A program made the translations under genes and the position numbers. A DNA stretch of 64,000 nucleotides, taken from the NCBI GenBank assembly GCA_040388375.1, contig JAZKBU010000005.1, positions 281,273 through 345,272 of the forward strand. Direction: 5' to 3'. Of the stretch, positions 12,869 through 22,462 are shown in pieces. The DNA is from Bacteroidota bacterium. Its GTDB lineage: Bacteria > Bacteroidota > Bacteroidia > UKL13-3. The notes under the pieces are model-generated. The model was given only the letters and a program-made list of their open reading frames with translations, had not been told where the DNA came from and made no database searches. How positions within the stretch are numbered: position 1 is the first letter of the stretch; the number at the start of each line of letters is the position of its first letter.

Positions 12869-15307
12869 ATGAATAATAACGTGATTAAAAAAGCCATACC
12901 CCATTTAGTGGCTGTTGGAGTAATTTTACTCTGTATGTTTATTTACTTTCAACCATTTTTTAGTGGCAAAGTATTAAAACAATATGATGTAAGCCAATGG
13001 CGTGCTACCTACGAAGAAACAGCTAAATTTGAGAAGGCCTCAGGCGAAAGAACCTATTGGACCAATAGTATTTTTGGTGGAATGCCCAATTATTTAATAG
13101 GTGCTTCCTATACGGGTAACTGGACTTACGATTGGTATTTTAAATTTCAGCAGGTATTTAAAAATCCAATGGATACCATATTCCTGTTGTTTATATGCTC
13201 ATACATTATGCTCTTGGTATTTGATGTAAATGCATGGCTGGCCATTATAGGGGCGCTGGCATTTACCTTTAGTTCGTTCAATTTTCTCAATATAGATGCT
13301 GGGCATATGACCAAGGGCAACGCCATTGCCTTTATTCCGCTGGTTATTGCGGGTATACAAATGACCTTTCATAAAAACCGTTTAATAGGGGCTTTGCTCA
13401 CAGGTATAGCCCTGTCATTACAGTTAGCAGCTAACCATTTACAAATAACCTATTATATCATATTTGTTATTATAGCTTGGGTTATAGTAGAGTTAATAGA
13501 TGCCATTAAACGAAACAACCTAAAGAACTTAATTTTAAGCGGAGCCTTTTTAATGGTTGCTGCTTTGGTAGCAGTAGGAACAGATATAACAGGTTTATTA
13601 GCTACCGAAGAGTATGGTAAATACAGTTTACGTTCACCAAGTGAATTAACCGTTGCTGCCGATGGAAAACAAACAGCCGATAATGGCAGCACTGGATTAG
13701 ACAAAGACTATGCTTTGGCCTGGAGTAATGGTGTTACAGAACCAATGACGTTATTGATTCCAAATTTTTACGGAGGTTCAAGTGCCGGTGAATTAAGTAC
13801 CAAAAGTGAAACCTATAAATTGTTTCAAAATGCAGGTTATCCCAATGCCAAAGAAGTAATAAAACAAATGCCAACCTATTGGGGCGATCAGCCTTATACA
13901 GCAGGTCCTATTTATTATGGTGCTATTATTTGCTTCCTGTTTATATTCGGAATGATAGTAGTAAAATCAAATGCCAAATGGTGGATTTTAGCTGCTTCCG
14001 TATTGGCCATATTTTTATCAATGGGGCGTAACTTTATGCCTTTAACCAATATATTCTTCGACTATTTCCCCTTCTATAATAAATTCAGGTCGGTAACATT
14101 TATTTTATGCCTTACCCAAACCTTGTTCCCTTTAATGGCCATATTAGGTTTACGGGAGTTAATCAGTGGTAAAATGACCAAAAAAGACCTGATGAATGGT
14201 TTAAAATATGGAGGAGGTATTACCGCTGCTATTTGTTTAATAATGGCTATGGCTCCCGGTATGTTTGCCAGCTTTACAGGTATGGGCGATGATAGAATGG
14301 ATAAAGGTTTAGTAGCTGCATTAATGGCCGATAGGGAAAGCTTAATGCAAATGGATGCCTTACGTTCATTCGCTTTAATAGTAGCAGCAGGTGCTTTAAT
14401 ATGGGCTTTTTACAATAAGAAAATAAAAGAAAACGTATTCATGATAGTAATAGGTTTATTAATACTTGGCGATTTATGGCAAGTAGATAAACGTTACTTA
14501 AACGAGCGCGATTTTGAAAAGAAAAAAGCGGAAGTATTATTTGAAAAAAGCACTGCTGACGAAATTATTTTACAAGATACAGATCCTAATTACAGGGTTT
14601 ATAACAACACTACTGATTTTGATAAAGATGCTATTACAGCCTATTACCATAAAAGTATAGGCGGTTACCATGGGGCTAAAATGCGCAGATTCCAGGAGTT
14701 AATAGAATGGCAGTTGGCAAAAAATAACATGGAGTGTTTCAATATGCTTAATGTTAAATATTTTATCCTTGGCGATTCAACAGGACAAAAGTTTGCACAA
14801 CGTAACCCCGATGCCAATGGCAATGCATGGTTTGTACCAAACTATAAAATTGTAGCCAATGCAGATGAAGAAATAAAAGCACTAACAGGATTTAAATCAA
14901 AAGAGTTAGCCTTTATTGACAAACGTTTTGAAAAAGACTTAGCTAATTTTAAAAGCAGTTACGATAGTACCGGTACTATAAAATTAACAAGCTATGTGCC
15001 TAATAAATTGGTTTATGAAAGCAATACAACTACACCGCAGTTAACCCTGTTCAGCGAAATATTTTACGATAAAGGTTGGAATGCATACGTTGATGATAAA
15101 CTAGTACCACACTTCAGAGCTGATTATGTTTTACGTGCTATGATAGTACCCGAAGGTAAACATACTATAACCTTTAAATTTGAACCTGAGGTAGTAGAAA
15201 AAGGACAAAAAATTGCCTTGGCTTCATCAGCTACTTTATACCTTGGTTTAATAGCCGTATTGGGTTTTTACTATGTGAAAAAACGCAAAGGAGAAGAAAC
15301 AGTATAA
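12869..15307 (+). CDS. YfhO-family polytopic membrane protein
   Basis: An 812-residue membrane protein of the YfhO family, related to GT-C glycosyltransferases. About a dozen hydrophobic segments span residues 10-560, beginning with HLVAVGVILLCMFIYFQPFF. A large soluble domain (about 565-780) is followed by a final membrane segment (LASSATLYLGLIAVLGFYYV). The loop after the first segment carries KQYDVSQW, resembling the acidic-residue loop typical of GT-C enzymes. YfhO proteins have been linked to lipoteichoic acid glycosylation in Bacillus; the substrate in Bacteroidota is unknown. A possible -7 box, TATATTCG, lies at 12842-12849. A terminator follows the gene. Confidence 0.9.
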   Translation: MNNNVIKKAIPHLVAVGVILLCMFIYFQPFFSGKVLKQYDVSQWRATYEETAKFEKASGERTYWTNSIFGGMPNYLIGASYTGNWTYDWYFKFQQVFKNPMDTIFLLFICSYIMLLVFDVNAWLAIIGALAFTFSSFNFLNIDAGHMTKGNAIAFIPLVIAGIQMTFHKNRLIGALLTGIALSLQLAANHLQITYYIIFVIIAWVIVELIDAIKRNNLKNLILSGAFLMVAALVAVGTDITGLLATEEYGKYSLRSPSELTVAADGKQTADNGSTGLDKDYALAWSNGVTEPMTLLIPNFYGGSSAGELSTKSETYKLFQNAGYPNAKEVIKQMPTYWGDQPYTAGPIYYGAIICFLFIFGMIVVKSNAKWWILAASVLAIFLSMGRNFMPLTNIFFDYFPFYNKFRSVTFILCLTQTLFPLMAILGLRELISGKMTKKDLMNGLKYGGGITAAICLIMAMAPGMFASFTGMGDDRMDKGLVAALMADRESLMQMDALRSFALIVAAGALIWAFYNKKIKENVFMIVIGLLILGDLWQVDKRYLNERDFEKKKAEVLFEKSTADEIILQDTDPNYRVYNNTTDFDKDAITAYYHKSIGGYHGAKMRRFQELIEWQLAKNNMECFNMLNVKYFILGDSTGQKFAQRNPDANGNAWFVPNYKIVANADEEIKALTGFKSKELAFIDKRFEKDLANFKSSYDSTGTIKLTSYVPNKLVYESNTTTPQLTLFSEIFYDKGWNAYVDDKLVPHFRADYVLRAMIVPEGKHTITFKFEPEVVEKGQKIALASSATLYLGLIAVLGFYYVKKRKGEETV

Positions 15308-15777: not shown

Positions 15778-16698
15778 TTATTTTACCCTTGCCACCATAC
15801 GCTGGTTCGATGTTTTGCTGAATAGTTTAAGCAATACATCCATACAAGTAACGGCACCTGTTACCAATAAATTATTAAGCGTAAAGAATTTGTTTAAGCT
15901 ACTTTTTTTATCGTAAAAGTAATGGTGCATAGATTGTACCCAGAAAGCAGGCGACAGTAAAAACTCCTGTTTTACCACAGTAAAATTGTTTTTCTCTACA
16001 TGCAGCTTAAGCGTTTTATCGCTGTATATATTAAAGTGCCTTGGAATATGATAGCCTCCCCAATACTTGTTTTTAAATAAGCGATGGTCCAGTGAATCAT
16101 AATTAGGCGTTTCAATAATTATAATGCCATTAGGATTTAAAATGCTGTGGCAGCGTTTTAATATTTTATCAGGGTCATACAAATGCTCAATTAATTGATT
16201 CATGATGATGACATCGTATTTCTCTTCAAACTCAATCGTTTCAAAATTACCCAGCTTAAAATGAATGCCTTTACCTTCTAAACGGCTTAAGCGTTTCATT
16301 TCAAATTCGTTGGCTGTTAGCTTCCATGTATCAGGGCCAAAACGTTTCAACGATTCAATTAAAATACCTGAGCCGGCACCAATTTCAATAATATTGGCTT
16401 TAGCGGGAATGTGTTTTTTATAATCCTTTACCTTGGCCAATTGTACACGGTCTCTAAACCAACGCACAACAGGGTTTAAATCTGTTTCAAATAAATAAGG
16501 CTGGTAATTATCCGGGTAAATAACGGGCAACTCCTCCATATCAGGCACATTTTGTAAATACAAATGTTGGCAAGCATTACAGGTAACTAGGTTAAAAGTA
16601 TCAAAAGTAGTTTGGTATTCAAAATCGTAACCTTGCGTATGCGGAGTATATGATTTGTTGCCGCAAACATTGCAGCTTTCAATCAGTTTTATTTTCAT
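15778..16698 (-). CDS. Class I SAM-dependent methyltransferase with N-terminal zinc ribbon
   Basis: A 306-residue methyltransferase. The N-terminus carries two CxxC pairs (CNVCGN near 9-14, CNACQH near 41-46) that should bind zinc, as in several sugar or lipid-linked methyltransferases. The SAM fold follows, with motif I IIEIGAGSGILIESL near 105-119, MNQLIEHLYDP near 165, and ETPNYDSLDHRLFKNKYWGG, typical of the Methyltransf_23 group. It is 3 bases from the desaturase gene in a minus-strand operon, facing the glycosyltransferase cluster, so a lipid or glycan substrate is inferred. Confidence 0.88.
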   Translation of the reverse strand: MKIKLIESCNVCGNKSYTPHTQGYDFEYQTTFDTFNLVTCNACQHLYLQNVPDMEELPVIYPDNYQPYLFETDLNPVVRWFRDRVQLAKVKDYKKHIPAKANIIEIGAGSGILIESLKRFGPDTWKLTANEFEMKRLSRLEGKGIHFKLGNFETIEFEEKYDVIIMNQLIEHLYDPDKILKRCHSILNPNGIIIIETPNYDSLDHRLFKNKYWGGYHIPRHFNIYSDKTLKLHVEKNNFTVVKQEFLLSPAFWVQSMHHYFYDKKSSLNKFFTLNNLLVTGAVTCMDVLLKLFSKTSNQRMVARVK

Positions 16699-16701
16699 TA
16701 T

Positions 16702-17637
16702 TTATTTAGATAATATAGGAAGATGAGAAAAGAAATACTTGATATGCGACCAATAGCTAAGTCTTATATGTTCCACATAACCGTTATCAGCTTGCATCAA
16801 AAGTTTCTTTAATTGAGGCAATTGATAATAAGGAACGTACATATATTCATGGTGCTCATAATGGTAATTCATATTATGAGGCGCAATAATAAATGATTCT
16901 AAAAAATTAGATTCAAAAGTATAAAGCCTGTTCGTGGCACTATCATCAGGTTCAGGTATAGAGTGCTCACAAAAACTACGGATAGTATTTAATGGAATAA
17001 ACACCCCAAATACAGCTACTACCCAAATAATAAAATAATACATCCAACCCAGAGTAAAATAAAAAATGGTCAGTATAATCAACTGTGTAATGGCAAAAGC
17101 CATAAAATCTTTCATTAAACCTTCTAATTTGTTATTGGCAGCTTTTTTCTGAATGGCATCCGTTTTTTTACCAAATAATAATTTATGCGCAATTTTAAAC
17201 ACAAAGCCAAAACCAATTACATTGGCCCACCACATATAAAATTTCGATTTAGTATTTTTATCACTCGCTTGGTAATATTGCCAATCAGCATCTTCACTGG
17301 TAGCAAATTTACCATGATGGTTTAAATGGTTGGTTCTGTTTAAACTCATTGGGGTGAATTGTGGTGACAATAAAATATAGCGGGTAATGAAATCGTTTAC
17401 CGATTTGTTTTCAGCCAAAGCGTAATGCAAACCATCGTGCCCTATAATTTGCAGGCGGTAAATAAAAATACCGGTTAAAATAATGGCCGCTATCAGCGAT
17501 ACTATATTTTGAAAATAGCCATATTGCGCAATGGATAATACAATACCTAAATAGTCCAAACCAATGTCTCTTAGGGGAATAAGGATATTTTTTTCTTTTA
17601 TTTCTTTAGGTAAAGCAATTCTTTTAGAGGCTTGCAT
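16702..17637 (-). CDS. Membrane fatty acid desaturase/hydroxylase
   Basis: A di-iron membrane enzyme of 311 residues that introduces a double bond or hydroxyl into an acyl chain. The three His boxes are present: HDGLH near 68-72, HLNHH near 104-108, and HNMNYHYEHH near 255-264. Hydrophobic segments surround residues 30-60 and 185-225. It shares a minus-strand operon with the methyltransferase downstream. A divergent glycosyltransferase begins 134 bases away, which suggests that the cluster builds or modifies a lipid. The substrate chain and regiochemistry cannot be read from the sequence. Confidence 0.9.
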   Translation of the reverse strand: MQASKRIALPKEIKEKNILIPLRDIGLDYLGIVLSIAQYGYFQNIVSLIAAIILTGIFIYRLQIIGHDGLHYALAENKSVNDFITRYILLSPQFTPMSLNRTNHLNHHGKFATSEDADWQYYQASDKNTKSKFYMWWANVIGFGFVFKIAHKLLFGKKTDAIQKKAANNKLEGLMKDFMAFAITQLIILTIFYFTLGWMYYFIIWVVAVFGVFIPLNTIRSFCEHSIPEPDDSATNRLYTFESNFLESFIIAPHNMNYHYEHHEYMYVPYYQLPQLKKLLMQADNGYVEHIRLSYWSHIKYFFSHLPILSK

Positions 17638-17771: not shown

Positions 17772-18932
17772 TTGGAAAATAAAGAAAACGTAGAGTTAAG
17801 TATAGTAATGCCTTGTTTAAACGAAGCGGAAACGCTTAAAATATGTATAGACAAAGCCATGAAATATTTAAAGGAAAATAATATAAAAGGCGAAGTAGTT
17901 ATTGGCGATAATGGCAGTACAGATGGAAGTCAGGCTATTGCTATACAGGCAGGTGCGCGCGTAATTGACGTGCCACGTAAAGGCTATGGCAGTGCTTTAA
18001 TGGCAGCTATCGAAGCTAGCTATGGTAAATACGTAATTATGGGCGATAGTGACGATAGTTACGATTTTAGCCGTTTAGGATTATTTGTAGAAAAACTACG
18101 CGAAGGACATGATTTGGTAATGGGTAACCGTTTTAAAGGTGGAGTAGCCAAAGGAGCCATGCCTTTTTTACACCGTTATTTAGGCAATCCTGTTTTATCA
18201 TTTATTGGACGTTTGTTTTTTGGTAGTAAAGCACGTGATTTTCATTGCGGCTTAAGAGGATTCAGGCAAGACATAGTAAGCCTACTAAACCTGCAAACTA
18301 CTGGAATGGAGTTTGCCAGCGAAATGGTGGTAAAAGCCACCATATTTAAGTTAAATATTACCGAAGTACCTACAACCTTATCACCGGACGGACGTTCGCG
18401 TCCGCCACATTTACGAACCTGGCGCGATGGATGGCGTCATTTACGCTTTTTATTATTATACAGCCCTAAATGGTTATTTTTAATACCGGGCATATTCTTA
18501 ATGTTGGTTGGGGGTATTATGGGTTTATGCATTATGCAAGGTCCTGTACATTTATTCAATATATATTTCGACACGAACACTTTATTATACGCAGCAGCTC
18601 TTGTCATTACGGGTTTTCAGGCCATTAATTTTGCCATATTTACCCGAACTTATGCCATACAAATGGGCTTTTTACCCCAAAACCAAACTTTAAACAAAAT
18701 GTATAAATATGTAAACCTCGAATCGTCATTGATAGTAGGTTTACTCGTAACCGCTATAGGCATTGGTGGTTCCATTTATTCAGTTATGTTGTGGAATAAA
18801 GTAAATTTTGGATATTTAGATTATTCATCCATTCTTAGGGTGGTAATACCCTCAGTAGTTTGTATCATTATTGGATTACAAATTATATTATCCAGCTTTT
18901 TCTTAAGCGTATTGGGGGTTAACAAAAAATAA
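17772..18932 (+). CDS. Family 2 glycosyltransferase, dolichyl-phosphate sugar synthase-like, membrane-anchored
   Basis: A 386-residue protein with an N-terminal GT2 catalytic domain (about 1-235) and a C-terminal membrane region. The catalytic part shows LSIVMPCLNEAETL, GDNGSTDGSQ, MGDSDDSYDF (the metal-binding acidic motif) and the DFHCGLRGFR loop of polyprenyl-phosphate glycosyltransferases. Four hydrophobic segments follow (about 238-385). Such enzymes load a sugar onto an undecaprenyl carrier that GT-C enzymes then use; a GT-C protein lies two genes downstream. The start is TTG at 17772, since no ATG precedes the GT2 core; TATTTTCG near 17740 may be the -7 box. Confidence 0.9.
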   Translation: MENKENVELSIVMPCLNEAETLKICIDKAMKYLKENNIKGEVVIGDNGSTDGSQAIAIQAGARVIDVPRKGYGSALMAAIEASYGKYVIMGDSDDSYDFSRLGLFVEKLREGHDLVMGNRFKGGVAKGAMPFLHRYLGNPVLSFIGRLFFGSKARDFHCGLRGFRQDIVSLLNLQTTGMEFASEMVVKATIFKLNITEVPTTLSPDGRSRPPHLRTWRDGWRHLRFLLLYSPKWLFLIPGIFLMLVGGIMGLCIMQGPVHLFNIYFDTNTLLYAAALVITGFQAINFAIFTRTYAIQMGFLPQNQTLNKMYKYVNLESSLIVGLLVTAIGIGGSIYSVMLWNKVNFGYLDYSSILRVVIPSVVCIIIGLQIILSSFFLSVLGVNKK

Positions 18933-18936
18933 ACAC

Positions 18937-19485
18937 ATGAAAAAATTAGACATATACCTACAAGACGTTAGAATTTCAAAAGCGAAACAATTTATAAAAA
19001 AAGGAAGTAGTGTATTAGATATTGGTACCGATGATGGTATTATGTTTGAAAAATTAAGCCACTTAATTGATAAAGGAGTTGGGATAGAACCAACCGTTGA
19101 AATCGTTATAAATAAAGGGAAATACAGTATTTTACCAGGATACTTTCCCGAAGCAATGGGTAGTTCAACAGAACAGTTTGATGCCATTACCATGTTAGCC
19201 GTTTTAGAGCATGTACCAACGGAACAGCAAAAAACATTAGGTGCTAACTGTGCTAAATATTTAAAAAAAGGAGGCAAAGTAATTATCACAGTGCCTTCGC
19301 CTCAGGTAGATTTAATATTAGATGTTTTGGGTAAATTGAAATTAATTGATGGCATGCAATTGCACGAACATTATGGGTTTAAGCCAAGCGATACCGAAAC
19401 CATATTTGCTGACGGATTTAAACTGCATACCAAAAAGACATTTCAATTGGGTTTAAATAATTTATTTGTTTTCGAAAAGATTTAA
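18937..19485 (+). CDS. Small SAM-dependent methyltransferase
   Basis: A 182-residue class I methyltransferase, 4 bases after the glycosyltransferase stop. Motif I is SSVLDIGTDDGIMFEKL (about 24-40), with Thr-Asp where most relatives have Gly-x-Gly. An acidic residue at strand 2 (GIEPTVE), the strand 4 segment FDAITMLAVLEHVP and the KGGKVIITVPSP motif follow. These fit a Methyltransf_11/23-type fold acting on a lipid or sugar. Its position between two glycosyltransferases suggests that it modifies their product. The 3' end lies a few bases before the next start. Confidence 0.87.
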   Translation: MKKLDIYLQDVRISKAKQFIKKGSSVLDIGTDDGIMFEKLSHLIDKGVGIEPTVEIVINKGKYSILPGYFPEAMGSSTEQFDAITMLAVLEHVPTEQQKTLGANCAKYLKKGGKVIITVPSPQVDLILDVLGKLKLIDGMQLHEHYGFKPSDTETIFADGFKLHTKKTFQLGLNNLFVFEKI

Positions 19486-19492
19486 AGAATTA

Positions 19493-22462
19493 ATGATGGA
19501 AAAACGCGTTTTAAACGAATCAAAAATTTCATTGCTTTTACAAGTTAGCGGACAAGCGACTGACGAAAAAGCCATCGAACATATTTGCCAATATACACTT
19601 AAATCAAAAACCGATTTAGAAGTAATTTTTATAGCACAAAATGCGGCAGCTCAAACAAAAGTAGAAGGCAATAAAGCGTACGCAGAGTTAGCTGCAAAAA
19701 ATAAATCGTTTATAGTTTATAACCAGAAAAAACAAGCATTAGGAGCCGGCTATGCGCAAGCATTACAACAAGCTACCGGAGCCAATAGTGTTTTAGTTGA
19801 AAACATAGATGAAGTAAATATAAATAATATAGTAACCTGGGTTAATGCCAATAAACGCACTGTAAAAGCCGATGCTATAGGTTATACTACACAAGCATAT
19901 ACAAAGCTAAGTACATTGCAAAATTGGGGATTAAAGTTTTATAGTTCAGCAGTACGTTTTTTTACCCCTTTACAAACAAAACAAACATCAGGCGAAATAT
20001 TAATAGTAAAAACCGAAGAAGCGCAACCCCTGTTTAGCCAACAATTATTAGCAGCCAATAGTCATTTAGCTCTGTTGTATACTGCCCATTGCAATGGTAT
20101 AAACACAGTTGACTATACCATAGTAGCCCAAAATAAAGTACCCAAAACAGGTATTGTACAAGGATTATTATTCCCCATTAAAGCAATTGCCGTACGCTGG
20201 AATTATTTTGTAAGTGCAGCCTTGGCCGAATTAAAATTACCCAATAAAGTAAGCTTTAAAAATGGCAATCATCCGTTGTACCGTTTGGTGTTTTTTGCTT
20301 TGATTGTATTGTCAACATTTGCCATGCCTTTTTTTAGTGGCGATTTTGGAATGACTTGGGATGAGCGTCAGCACAACGATTACTCACAACTTTCTTATAA
20401 ATGGTTTGCCAGCATGGGTAGCGATACCAGTGCCATTGCCGATCCAAAAGGCAATGCCGATTATGTACGCCAAGCCTACCGTTATTATGGTGAACAAATC
20501 AATACTGTAGCCGCCATTGTTTATACTACTTTCGATTTACCTCCATTTGAAACACGCCATTTTATCAATTCATTATATGGCTTAATAGGCATTATATTTT
20601 GTGGTTTAGCCGTTAAGCAATTAGTAGGCTGGCGAGGTGGAATATTAGCCATATTATTTATGGTTTTTAATCCGGGGTGGTTTGGTAATTCCATGAATAA
20701 TCCTACCGATATTCCTTTTGCTTCCAGCTTTGCCATGTCGTTATACTTTTTTATTAAAATATTAAAGTCAATGCCAAAGCCATCGCGCAGCAATTTAGTA
20801 TGGTTGGCATTAGCAGTTGGTTTAGGTATAGGCTCACGTATAGGTGCATTATTGATACTGGCTTATTTTGCTTTATTTATAGGTATACAATGGCTTTGGC
20901 TGTTTAAAGATAAAACACAAAAGCCAATGGGTTTAATACCTAATTACCTGAAAATATTTTTAACAGTAGCCGTATTAGGTTACATATTCGGTATTTTATT
21001 ATGGCCTTACGGATTAAGTAATCCACTTAAAAATCCATTTATCGCTTTTGCCAAAGCATCAGATAATTCATTTTATACCAATAATGTAGAAATATTTGAA
21101 GGCAAGCGTATGTATATGCTTTTACAAGCACCTTGGTATTATGTAGTTAAATTTTTAGCTATAGGAAACCCGCTATACCTGTTAGCAGGCTTAGGTTTAT
21201 TTATAGTATTAATAAAATGGATTAAAGATAAAATACGTATTGGTATTGCACTCATGTTATTGTTTATGGTTGCTTTTCCAATAGCTTATGCCGAGTATTC
21301 AAACATTAATTATTACAACGGTTGGCGACATTATTTATTCATTGTTCCATCGTTGGTGGCAATTGCAGCCGTTGCTTTCGATTATTTAATTGGCAATAAC
21401 AATAAAATAGTACAGTATGTTTCCTTAGTTGTTTTACTAGGTTTATTTGCCAAGCCAACCTATTGGTTTGTAAAAAATCATCCAAACCAGTATGTATATT
21501 TTAACGAGTTAGTAGGAGGTATAAATGGTGCTTACGGTAATTACGAAACCGATTATTACTCTAACTCGTGCCGTGAAGCAGCCGAGTGGATTGCCAAACA
21601 AGAGCCTAGCAAAAAAGCATTGGTTTGTATCAATAACGAGCCATTAACAGCTTCGTATTATGCCAATAAAATCAATCCTGATTTGCAGTTTCAATGGGTG
21701 AGAGAGTACGAAGAGCAAAAGCCTGAATGGGATTATTTAATATTAACAACCCGTACCTATTCAAAAAACGAATTGTTAAATGGTGCATTTCCTCCGCGTG
21801 GCACCGTTTATACTGTTATGGCTGATAATGTTCCATTGGCTGCAGTAGTAAAACGTGAAGTTAATTATATGCCAATGGGATATAAAACAATAGATGGCAA
21901 ACAACTTGACTCTTCGGTTATGTACTTTAAAAAAGCAGTAGAGTGGGAGCCTAAGAGCGAAGAAGCGCATCGTATGTATGGCTTTGCCTTAATGTTAACC
22001 AACCAGTTTGATGCAGCCGATAAAGAATTTGATCAAGCCATTGCTTTATTCCCTGAAAACTATTCAGCATACTCCAATAAAGCCTTATTGTACTTTAACA
22101 AAAAAGAGTACCAAAAATGTATTGATGCCAGTATAAAAGCCACTACCTATAAAAACAATACCACAGAGGCCTATTATTATTCAGCTTTAGCCTATTTAAA
22201 TATGAATAATTATAATGGAGCTATTGAGCGTTTAGAAACAGCTCTAAAGTTTAACGGACAAACACCGGAAATTTATTACTATTTAGGTAAGTCGTACGAG
22301 GCAGTGAACAATGCAACACAGGCTGCTTCTAATTACGAATACTGCTTGGGTATGAATCCAAACTTTAAGCAAGCTTGGGCTGATTTAGCCAACCAGTATA
22401 AAATATTAGGAAAAATGGATGGTTACGAATATTGCATGCAGAAGTTCAACAGCACGCCTTAA
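19493..22462 (+). CDS. Three-part membrane protein: degenerate GT2-like domain, GT-C (PMT/ArnT-like) domain, TPR tail
   Basis: A 989-residue protein starting at the ATG pair 19493/19496, 7 bases after the methyltransferase stop. Residues 1-235 resemble a GT2 fold but have no clear DxD motif (SVLVENIDEVN stands in its place). Residues about 265-690 hold roughly ten membrane segments, with the acidic-loop motif MTWDERQHNDYS near 287-298, as expected for a GT-C enzyme using a polyprenyl-phosphate sugar donor. Residues about 790-985 are TPR repeats (WEPKSEEAHRMYGFALMLTN and similar), probably periplasmic. Together with the upstream GT2 synthase this suggests donor synthesis and then transfer to a protein or lipid. 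The substrate is unknown. Confidence 0.85.
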   Translation: MMEKRVLNESKISLLLQVSGQATDEKAIEHICQYTLKSKTDLEVIFIAQNAAAQTKVEGNKAYAELAAKNKSFIVYNQKKQALGAGYAQALQQATGANSVLVENIDEVNINNIVTWVNANKRTVKADAIGYTTQAYTKLSTLQNWGLKFYSSAVRFFTPLQTKQTSGEILIVKTEEAQPLFSQQLLAANSHLALLYTAHCNGINTVDYTIVAQNKVPKTGIVQGLLFPIKAIAVRWNYFVSAALAELKLPNKVSFKNGNHPLYRLVFFALIVLSTFAMPFFSGDFGMTWDERQHNDYSQLSYKWFASMGSDTSAIADPKGNADYVRQAYRYYGEQINTVAAIVYTTFDLPPFETRHFINSLYGLIGIIFCGLAVKQLVGWRGGILAILFMVFNPGWFGNSMNNPTDIPFASSFAMSLYFFIKILKSMPKPSRSNLVWLALAVGLGIGSRIGALLILAYFALFIGIQWLWLFKDKTQKPMGLIPNYLKIFLTVAVLGYIFGILLWPYGLSNPLKNPFIAFAKASDNSFYTNNVEIFEGKRMYMLLQAPWYYVVKFLAIGNPLYLLAGLGLFIVLIKWIKDKIRIGIALMLLFMVAFPIAYAEYSNINYYNGWRHYLFIVPSLVAIAAVAFDYLIGNNNKIVQYVSLVVLLGLFAKPTYWFVKNHPNQYVYFNELVGGINGAYGNYETDYYSNSCREAAEWIAKQEPSKKALVCINNEPLTASYYANKINPDLQFQWVREYEEQKPEWDYLILTTRTYSKNELLNGAFPPRGTVYTVMADNVPLAAVVKREVNYMPMGYKTIDGKQLDSSVMYFKKAVEWEPKSEEAHRMYGFALMLTNQFDAADKEFDQAIALFPENYSAYSNKALLYFNKKEYQKCIDASIKATTYKNNTTEAYYYSALAYLNMNNYNGAIERLETALKFNGQTPEIYYYLGKSYEAVNNATQAASNYEYCLGMNPNFKQAWADLANQYKILGKMDGYEYCMQKFNSTP

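What the first reader, a model, noticed from the sequence alone, without database searches (positions are those of the whole stretch)
19493..22462. Three-part fusion: GT2-like domain without DxD, GT-C membrane domain, TPR tail
A degenerate GT2-like domain lacking the metal-binding motif is fused to a GT-C membrane domain that keeps an acidic motif (WDERQHND), plus a C-terminal TPR array. The first domain may have become a regulatory or binding module. A canonical polyprenyl-phosphate sugar synthase (17772) and two methyltransferases are next to it, so the donor, the transferase and modifying enzymes are all in one place.
Basis: partly seen in the sequence, partly recalled or inferred. Interest (0 to 1): 0.55.

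Follow-up and report, generated by a model that had tools for sequence, protein, structure and literature searches.

The report
Dead sugar-synthase fused to membrane glycosyltransferase
A membrane enzyme that probably attaches sugars outside the inner membrane carries, on its inner side, the inactive remains of a second sugar enzyme that looks intact in related bacteria, while a separate enzyme of that kind is encoded beside it; this offers a natural series for studying how a two-in-one enzyme became a pseudoenzyme with an outside partner.

Summary
Residues 1-248 are a GT2 domain of the polyprenyl-phosphate sugar synthase type (predicted fold best matches DPM synthase, ArnC, GtrB) whose metal- and nucleotide-binding residues are gone. 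Residues about 261-789 are an ArnT/PMT-like GT-C domain with an invariant Asp after TM1; 790-989 are TPRs. New here: in Saprospiraceae/Chitinophagales MAGs the same GT-C-TPR protein carries an intact GT2 domain. The window's domain is kin to that fused GT2 (profile-profile 99.8%), not to the neighbouring synthase family (5%). Where the fused GT2 is dead (window-like set), a separate GT2 lies beside it in 30 of 32 loci; where intact, in 0 of 13. A methyltransferase is adjacent in 28 of 32 and 12 of 13. The dead domain is under purifying selection (dN/dS 0.06-0.24, 13 pairs). Most likely it is a retained pseudoenzyme that supports the GT-C and/or docks the separate synthase; docking is inferred, not shown. 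Against a strict rule: degenerate relatives outside this set rarely have an adjacent GT2 (2 of 15). Only one of the two methyltransferases is a conserved partner. Donor sugar and acceptor unknown. New variant of a known kind.

The parts
17772..18932 (+). Stand-alone GT2 polyprenyl-phosphate sugar synthase, 386 aa, DxD = DSD, C-terminal hydrophobic segments
   Evidence: PF00535 93.0 bits; TIGR04182 AglJ 125 bits, below its cut-off 325; DSD and hydrophobic windows
18937..19485 (+). Class I SAM methyltransferase, 182 aa, conserved partner
   Evidence: PF13489 48.6 bits; same family adjacent in 27 of 39 window-like loci
19493..22462 (+). Three-part protein, 989 aa
19493..20236 (+). Pseudo-GT2 domain, residues 1-248
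19799..19807 (+). Place of the DxD motif, here E-N-I (residues 103-105)
   Evidence: alignment of 19 intact and 39 degenerate domains
20273..21859 (+). GT-C membrane domain plus ArnT-like C-terminal part, residues 261-789
20357..20380 (+). Acidic motif WDERQHND (residues 289-296) just after TM1; D290 invariant
21860..22459 (+). TPR array, residues 790-989

Best explanation
An extracytoplasmic glycosylation unit in which donor synthesis is now done by a separate protein instead of by the fused domain. Inferred pathway: the stand-alone GT2 (17772) loads polyprenyl phosphate with a sugar at the cytoplasmic face; the lipid-linked sugar is flipped by an unidentified factor; the GT-C domain of 19493 transfers it on the periplasmic face to an acceptor chosen with help of the periplasmic TPRs; the methyltransferase (18937) may modify the sugar or the donor. 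Shown by computation: the N-terminal domain is a GT2 fold that lacks the catalytic residues, is kin to an intact GT2 domain fused at the same place in Saprospiraceae/Chitinophagales relatives, and is under purifying selection. Inferred: it is kept as a structural or docking piece that holds GT-C TM1 and/or receives the separate synthase, so that the donor is made next to the transferase.
For: Fold and profile evidence for GT2; intact fused form with profile match to the window domain over positions 15-251 (40.7 bits) and 99.8% profile-profile, against 5% to the 17772 family. Catalytic residues lost in 39 window-like domains. dN/dS 0.06-0.24 in 13 pairs. Separate same-strand GT2 within 2.5 kb in 30 of 32 window-like, 0 of 13 intact loci, 0 of 128 background centres; methyltransferase in 28 of 32, 12 of 13, 0 of 128. 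Three GT2 types fill the slot. Conservation kept best in the membrane-side helix JM2.
Against: No interaction data. Degenerate relatives outside the window-like set have an adjacent GT2 in only 2 of 15 loci, a methyltransferase in 2 of 15; some lineages lack the domain altogether and have an adjacent GT2 in 2 of 18. The window-like and intact sets are each mostly one clade, so the contrast rests on few independent events. Two window-like loci, L071 and L081, have no adjacent GT2. No flippase in the cluster.
Confidence: 0.6

Rival explanations
1. The dead domain is purely intramolecular: it helps insert, fold or orient the GT-C (its juxtamembrane helix runs into TM1) and has no partner protein. 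The neighbouring GT2 supplies the donor by diffusion in the membrane.
For: JM2 keeps most of its conservation (2.29 v 2.73 bits in intact); degenerate relatives outside the window-like set keep the domain without an adjacent GT2 (13 of 15).
Against: Some lineages dispense with the domain and keep the GT-C (23 of 104 loci), so it is not needed by every such GT-C.
Confidence: 0.3
2. The dead domain is a ligand sensor: it still binds a nucleotide sugar, polyprenyl phosphate or another ligand and regulates the GT-C.
For: Fold kept; several basic positions are fixed in the dead set but not in the intact set, e.g. K69 in 33 of 39 and K121 in 32 of 39, not the common residue in the 19 intact.
Against: The residues that hold nucleotide and metal are gone and no pocket residue is newly conserved that I could point to; no ligand was tested.
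Confidence: 0.12
3. The domain is still an active, metal-independent glycosyltransferase.
For: Passages of PMC5526996 report residual activity of DxD variants of an archaeal DPM synthase.
Against: Not only the DxD but also the N-terminal Glu, strand-2 Asps, GKG Lys, GSR Arg and acceptor-loop Lys are lost in nearly all 39; a separate GT2 is beside it.
Confidence: 0.03
4. 17772 and 19493 are merely neighbours; the GT-C uses a donor made elsewhere in the genome.
For: Outside the window-like set GT2 is rarely adjacent, and every one of the 64 genomes searched has other GT2 matches.
Against: The same GT-C is fused to an intact synthase of this kind in relatives; adjacency in 30 of 32 against 0 of 128 background centres; different GT2 genes fill the same slot.
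Confidence: 0.12

Closest known systems
Polyprenyl-phosphate sugar synthases of GT2 (DPM synthase, GtrB, ArnC)
   Same: Predicted fold of the N-domain including the two juxtamembrane helices
   Different: Catalytic residues lost; no TM helices of its own, it runs straight into GT-C TM1
GT-C enzymes of the ArnT / PMT kind
   Same: Fold of residues 260-789, Asp-Glu after TM1
   Different: GT2 domain in front and TPR array behind; donor and acceptor unknown
TMTC1-4 (O-mannosyltransferases with TPRs)
   Same: GT-C membrane part followed by TPRs on the non-cytoplasmic side (passages of PMC7801869)
   Different: No DUF1736 hit in the Pfam scan at E<=1; GT2 domain in front
Three-component periplasmic glycosylation systems (GtrA-GtrB-Gtr and kin)
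   Same: Polyprenyl-phosphate sugar synthase gene beside a GT-C gene (passages of PMC11127046)
   Different: No flippase gene in the cluster (only GtrA-family match on another contig); synthase fused in relatives and dead here; methyltransferase and TPRs added

Membership tests
GT2, DPM-synthase type (residues 1-248) | GT-A fold with juxtamembrane helices | tested here: met
   9ep0 Z 15.7, rmsd 4.2, 209 aligned; ArnC, GtrB
GT2, DPM-synthase type (residues 1-248) | DxD and nucleotide-binding acidic residues | tested here: not met
   DxD Asps 6 and 0 of 39, strand-2 Asps 4 and 2 of 39, N-terminal Glu 0 of 39; so it is a GT2 homologue, not a GT2 enzyme
GT2, DPM-synthase type (residues 1-248) | Pfam PF00535 over cut-off | tested here: not met
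   no hit for the window; L067, L068 over cut-off, half model; L069 16.6 bits, below; other 7 of 10 none
GT2, 17772 | PF00535 over cut-off and DxD | tested here: met
   93.0 bits; DSD at 92
GT-C superfamily (ArnT/PMT kind) | Multi-TM GT-C fold | tested here: met
   ArnT 5f15 Z 24.7, Pmt4 9i5l Z 24.6; PMT_2 26.4 bits v 26.1
GT-C superfamily (ArnT/PMT kind) | Acidic residue in the first outer loop after TM1 | tested here: met
   D290 in 21 of 21
GT-C superfamily (ArnT/PMT kind) | Use of a polyprenyl-phosphate sugar donor | not testable with these tools
   suggested by the intact fused synthase in relatives
TMTC | DUF1736 loop | tested here: not met
   no such family among Pfam hits at E<=1; that it defines TMTCs is from PMC7801869
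Three-component periplasmic glycosylation system | Synthase beside GT-C | tested here: met
   30 of 32 window-like loci
Three-component periplasmic glycosylation system | Dedicated flippase in the unit | tested here: inconclusive
   only GtrA-family match in the genome lies on contig C1, not here; MATE-type flippases were not searched

The most novel reading that the evidence does not exclude
The dead GT2 domain has become a docking adaptor: it recruits stand-alone GT2 synthases by a GT2-GT2 contact, so that one GT-C can change its donor sugar by swapping the neighbouring synthase gene (three GT2 types are seen in the slot) without rebuilding the transferase.
Probability: 0.3. Interest if true: 0.7.

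Novelty: new variant of a known kind. Interest (0 to 1): 0.5.

Why it matters
One orthologous family shows three states: an intact donor synthase fused to its transferase, a dead synthase domain with a separate synthase next door, and no domain at all. That makes two questions testable: why catalytically dead domains are kept, and whether making and using a lipid-linked sugar are physically coupled. The intact fusion is also genomic evidence that this uncharacterised Bacteroidota GT-C family uses a polyprenyl-phosphate sugar.

Tried and rejected
Pfam and NCBIfam scans of the window's own N-domain gave no GT2 hit; relatives, profiles and fold resolved it. The full-length fold search listed only GT-C and TPR matches, so the domain was folded alone. 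Idea that the dead domain is a duplicate of 17772: rejected, 5% against 99.8%. Idea that a dead domain always goes with an adjacent GT2: rejected outside the window-like set, 2 of 15. Degenerate domains of groups f60b and L213 could not be tied to GT2. A phylum-wide search with the GT-C of L141 matched 9 of 395 genomes; no further intact form was sought among them. The careful tree did not finish; quick trees were used, the root is unknown, and after dropping seven long rows the intact rows need two changes rather than one. Ten literature searches listed no title or abstract start that describes a fused or dead GT2 with GT-C and TPR; the library is open-access only. PMC7801869, PMC4728340, PMC5526996 and PMC11127046 were read as found passages, all others as listings.

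Weak points of method: in the GT2 seed alignment one of 12 rows (L148) was cut wrongly to its tail, and 11 of the intact loci are seeds, so their own scores are high by construction; Pfam confirmed intact GT2 only for the two I scanned, L141 and L138. The 'window-like set' (39 loci) joins loci of the window's family known by handle with loci assigned by sequence identity. Several positions scored as lost are gaps in the alignment (N-terminal Glu 36 of 39, acceptor-loop Lys 36 of 39). The dN/dS code is my own NG86; the 13 pairs are those printed with dS<1.3 out of 67 distinct (293 computed), and some share a locus. Loci with short flanks were dropped from the adjacency counts: 7 of 39 window-like, 6 of 19 intact, 4 of 19 other degenerate, 5 of 23 domain-less.

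Full report
What is there. The ORF at 19493-22462 (+) encodes 989 aa. It follows, on the same strand, a GT2 synthase (17772-18932) and a methyltransferase (18937-19485). In its own genome the three other matches cover only TPR residues.

N-domain. Pfam and NCBIfam do not recognise GT2 in residues 1-248 of the window protein. Three other routes show that it is GT2. First, relatives at 57% overall identity (L067, L068) pass the PF00535 cut-off over the first half of the model; of ten N-domains scanned these two passed, one (L069) scored below, seven gave no GT2 hit. Second, a profile of 21 degenerate domains against all PDB sequences gave 8 hits at E<=10, 7 of them GT2 enzymes including DPM synthase, at weak E-values of 0.0036-0.13. 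Third, a structure predicted from those same degenerate rows (pLDDT 87.6, pTM 0.86) best matches DPM synthase (9ep0, Z 15.7, rmsd 4.2, 209 aligned), then ArnC and GtrB.

An intact relative. A genome-contig scan kept 77 loci. In Saprospiraceae and Chitinophagales MAGs the same GT-C-TPR protein starts with a complete GT2 domain. Pfam confirms it for the two tested, L141 and L138: PF00535 over 1-168 of 168, 94.4 and 86.9 bits, plus PMT_2 and TPR. A profile of these domains hits the window's domain over positions 15-251 with 40.7 bits. Profile-profile comparison gives 99.8% between window-like degenerate and intact sets, 5% between the degenerate set and the 17772 family, and 0.3% to a methyltransferase control. 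Degenerate domains of other families join the window-like set at 99% (f53), 98% (L132, L196), 95% (f39, Flexithrix), 91% (f38), 85% (f60a), 78% (L194); f60b and L213 do not.

What was lost and kept. Of residues present in 19 of 19 intact domains, the 39 window-like degenerate ones keep: N-terminal Glu 0, strand-2 Asps 4 and 2, Lys of GKG 0, DxD Asps 6 and 0, Arg of GSR 3, acceptor-loop Lys 0. I match these motifs by position to residues named for GtrB (D94, D96, R122, D157, R200) and archaeal DPM synthase (DAD 89/91, Glu12, Arg117); no residue-level structural alignment was made. Kept: Asn in JM1 37, Asp of D-x-x-C-G 36, Gly before strand 4 36 of 39. The window itself has Ser and Gln at the first two, so it is more degenerate than most relatives. 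Conservation fell most in the DxD loop (4.14 to 1.20 bits) and little in the membrane-side helix JM2 (2.73 to 2.29). Purifying selection persists: dN/dS 0.06-0.24 in the N-domain against 0.01-0.06 in GT-C, in 13 pairs with dS<1.3.

GT-C and TPR. The full-length model (pLDDT 86.5, pTM 0.81) matches ArnT over 260-789 and Pmt4 over 254-686. D290 after TM1 is invariant in 21 of 21. My count of about 11 TM helices puts the TPRs outside the cytoplasm if the N-terminus is inside, as reported for TMTCs.

Neighbourhood. 138 loci, 104 after removal of near-copies at 97%: 58 degenerate, 19 intact, 23 without the domain, 4 cut by contig ends. With at least 2.5 kb on both sides, a separate same-strand GT2 is near in 30 of 32 window-like, 0 of 13 intact, 2 of 15 other degenerate and 2 of 18 domain-less loci; a methyltransferase in 28 of 32, 12 of 13, 2 of 15 and 2 of 18. 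In 128 background centres from 20 stretches of 20 kb of seven genomes both counts are 0. The 17772 family fills the slot in 32 of 39 window-like loci; a 225-aa GT2 does in L069, a 244-aa one in L082 and L083. Of the two exceptions, the genome of L071 has a 74% copy of 17772 on another contig, and that of L081 has no close copy.

Spread and history. In the window's family the N+GT-C query matches 51 of 64 genomes and the N-domain alone 46 of 64. In the class GT-C matches 75 of 395. On quick trees the labels are strongly clustered: intact rows are one group (support 52) or need two changes, degenerate rows six, domain-less rows seven or six. Domain-less L198, L200, L201 and L202 group with degenerate L210-L212 (100), so at least one loss is likely. 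The root is unknown; an intact fused ancestor is the simplest reading, not a proof.

Mechanism. That a polyprenyl-phosphate synthase supplies this GT-C is suggested by the intact fusion and by the gene order. The role of the dead domain is open: docking of the separate synthase, or support of the GT-C. Loss of the domain in some lineages and lack of a linked GT2 in others argue against any one strict role.

Verdict. Added here: the intact fused relative, the line of descent, the move of the synthase from fused to separate, and the evidence of selection. I rate it a new variant of known extracytoplasmic glycosylation systems, of moderate interest.

Noticed in passing
12869-15307 (+): 812-aa membrane protein of the YfhO family (PF09586, 48 bits) five genes upstream; possibly a second GT-C-like transferase.
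   Followed up: no
15778-17637 (-): Methyltransferase and fatty acid desaturase genes, divergent from the cluster; no counterpart in the 20 neighbourhoods.
   Followed up: partly
L080 6459-7889, L122 4532-5962: A 476-aa ORF sits between the methyltransferase and the fusion gene in these two loci; not identified.
   Followed up: no
L071 6538-7719 and relatives: A 390-aa ORF with a helix-turn-helix (HTH_DeoR/HTH_11) lies just downstream in 23 of 39 window-like loci.
   Followed up: partly
L197, L199: Two domain-less relatives have about 415 aa after the GT-C instead of about 205.
   Followed up: no
L150: A contig labelled Omnitrophus encodes a domain-less relative of this GT-C; transfer or contamination not resolved.
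   Followed up: no
window residues 37, 39, 69, 71, 121, 122 of the 19493 protein: Basic positions that are nearly fixed in the dead domains, some of them not common in intact ones; unexplained.
   Followed up: partly
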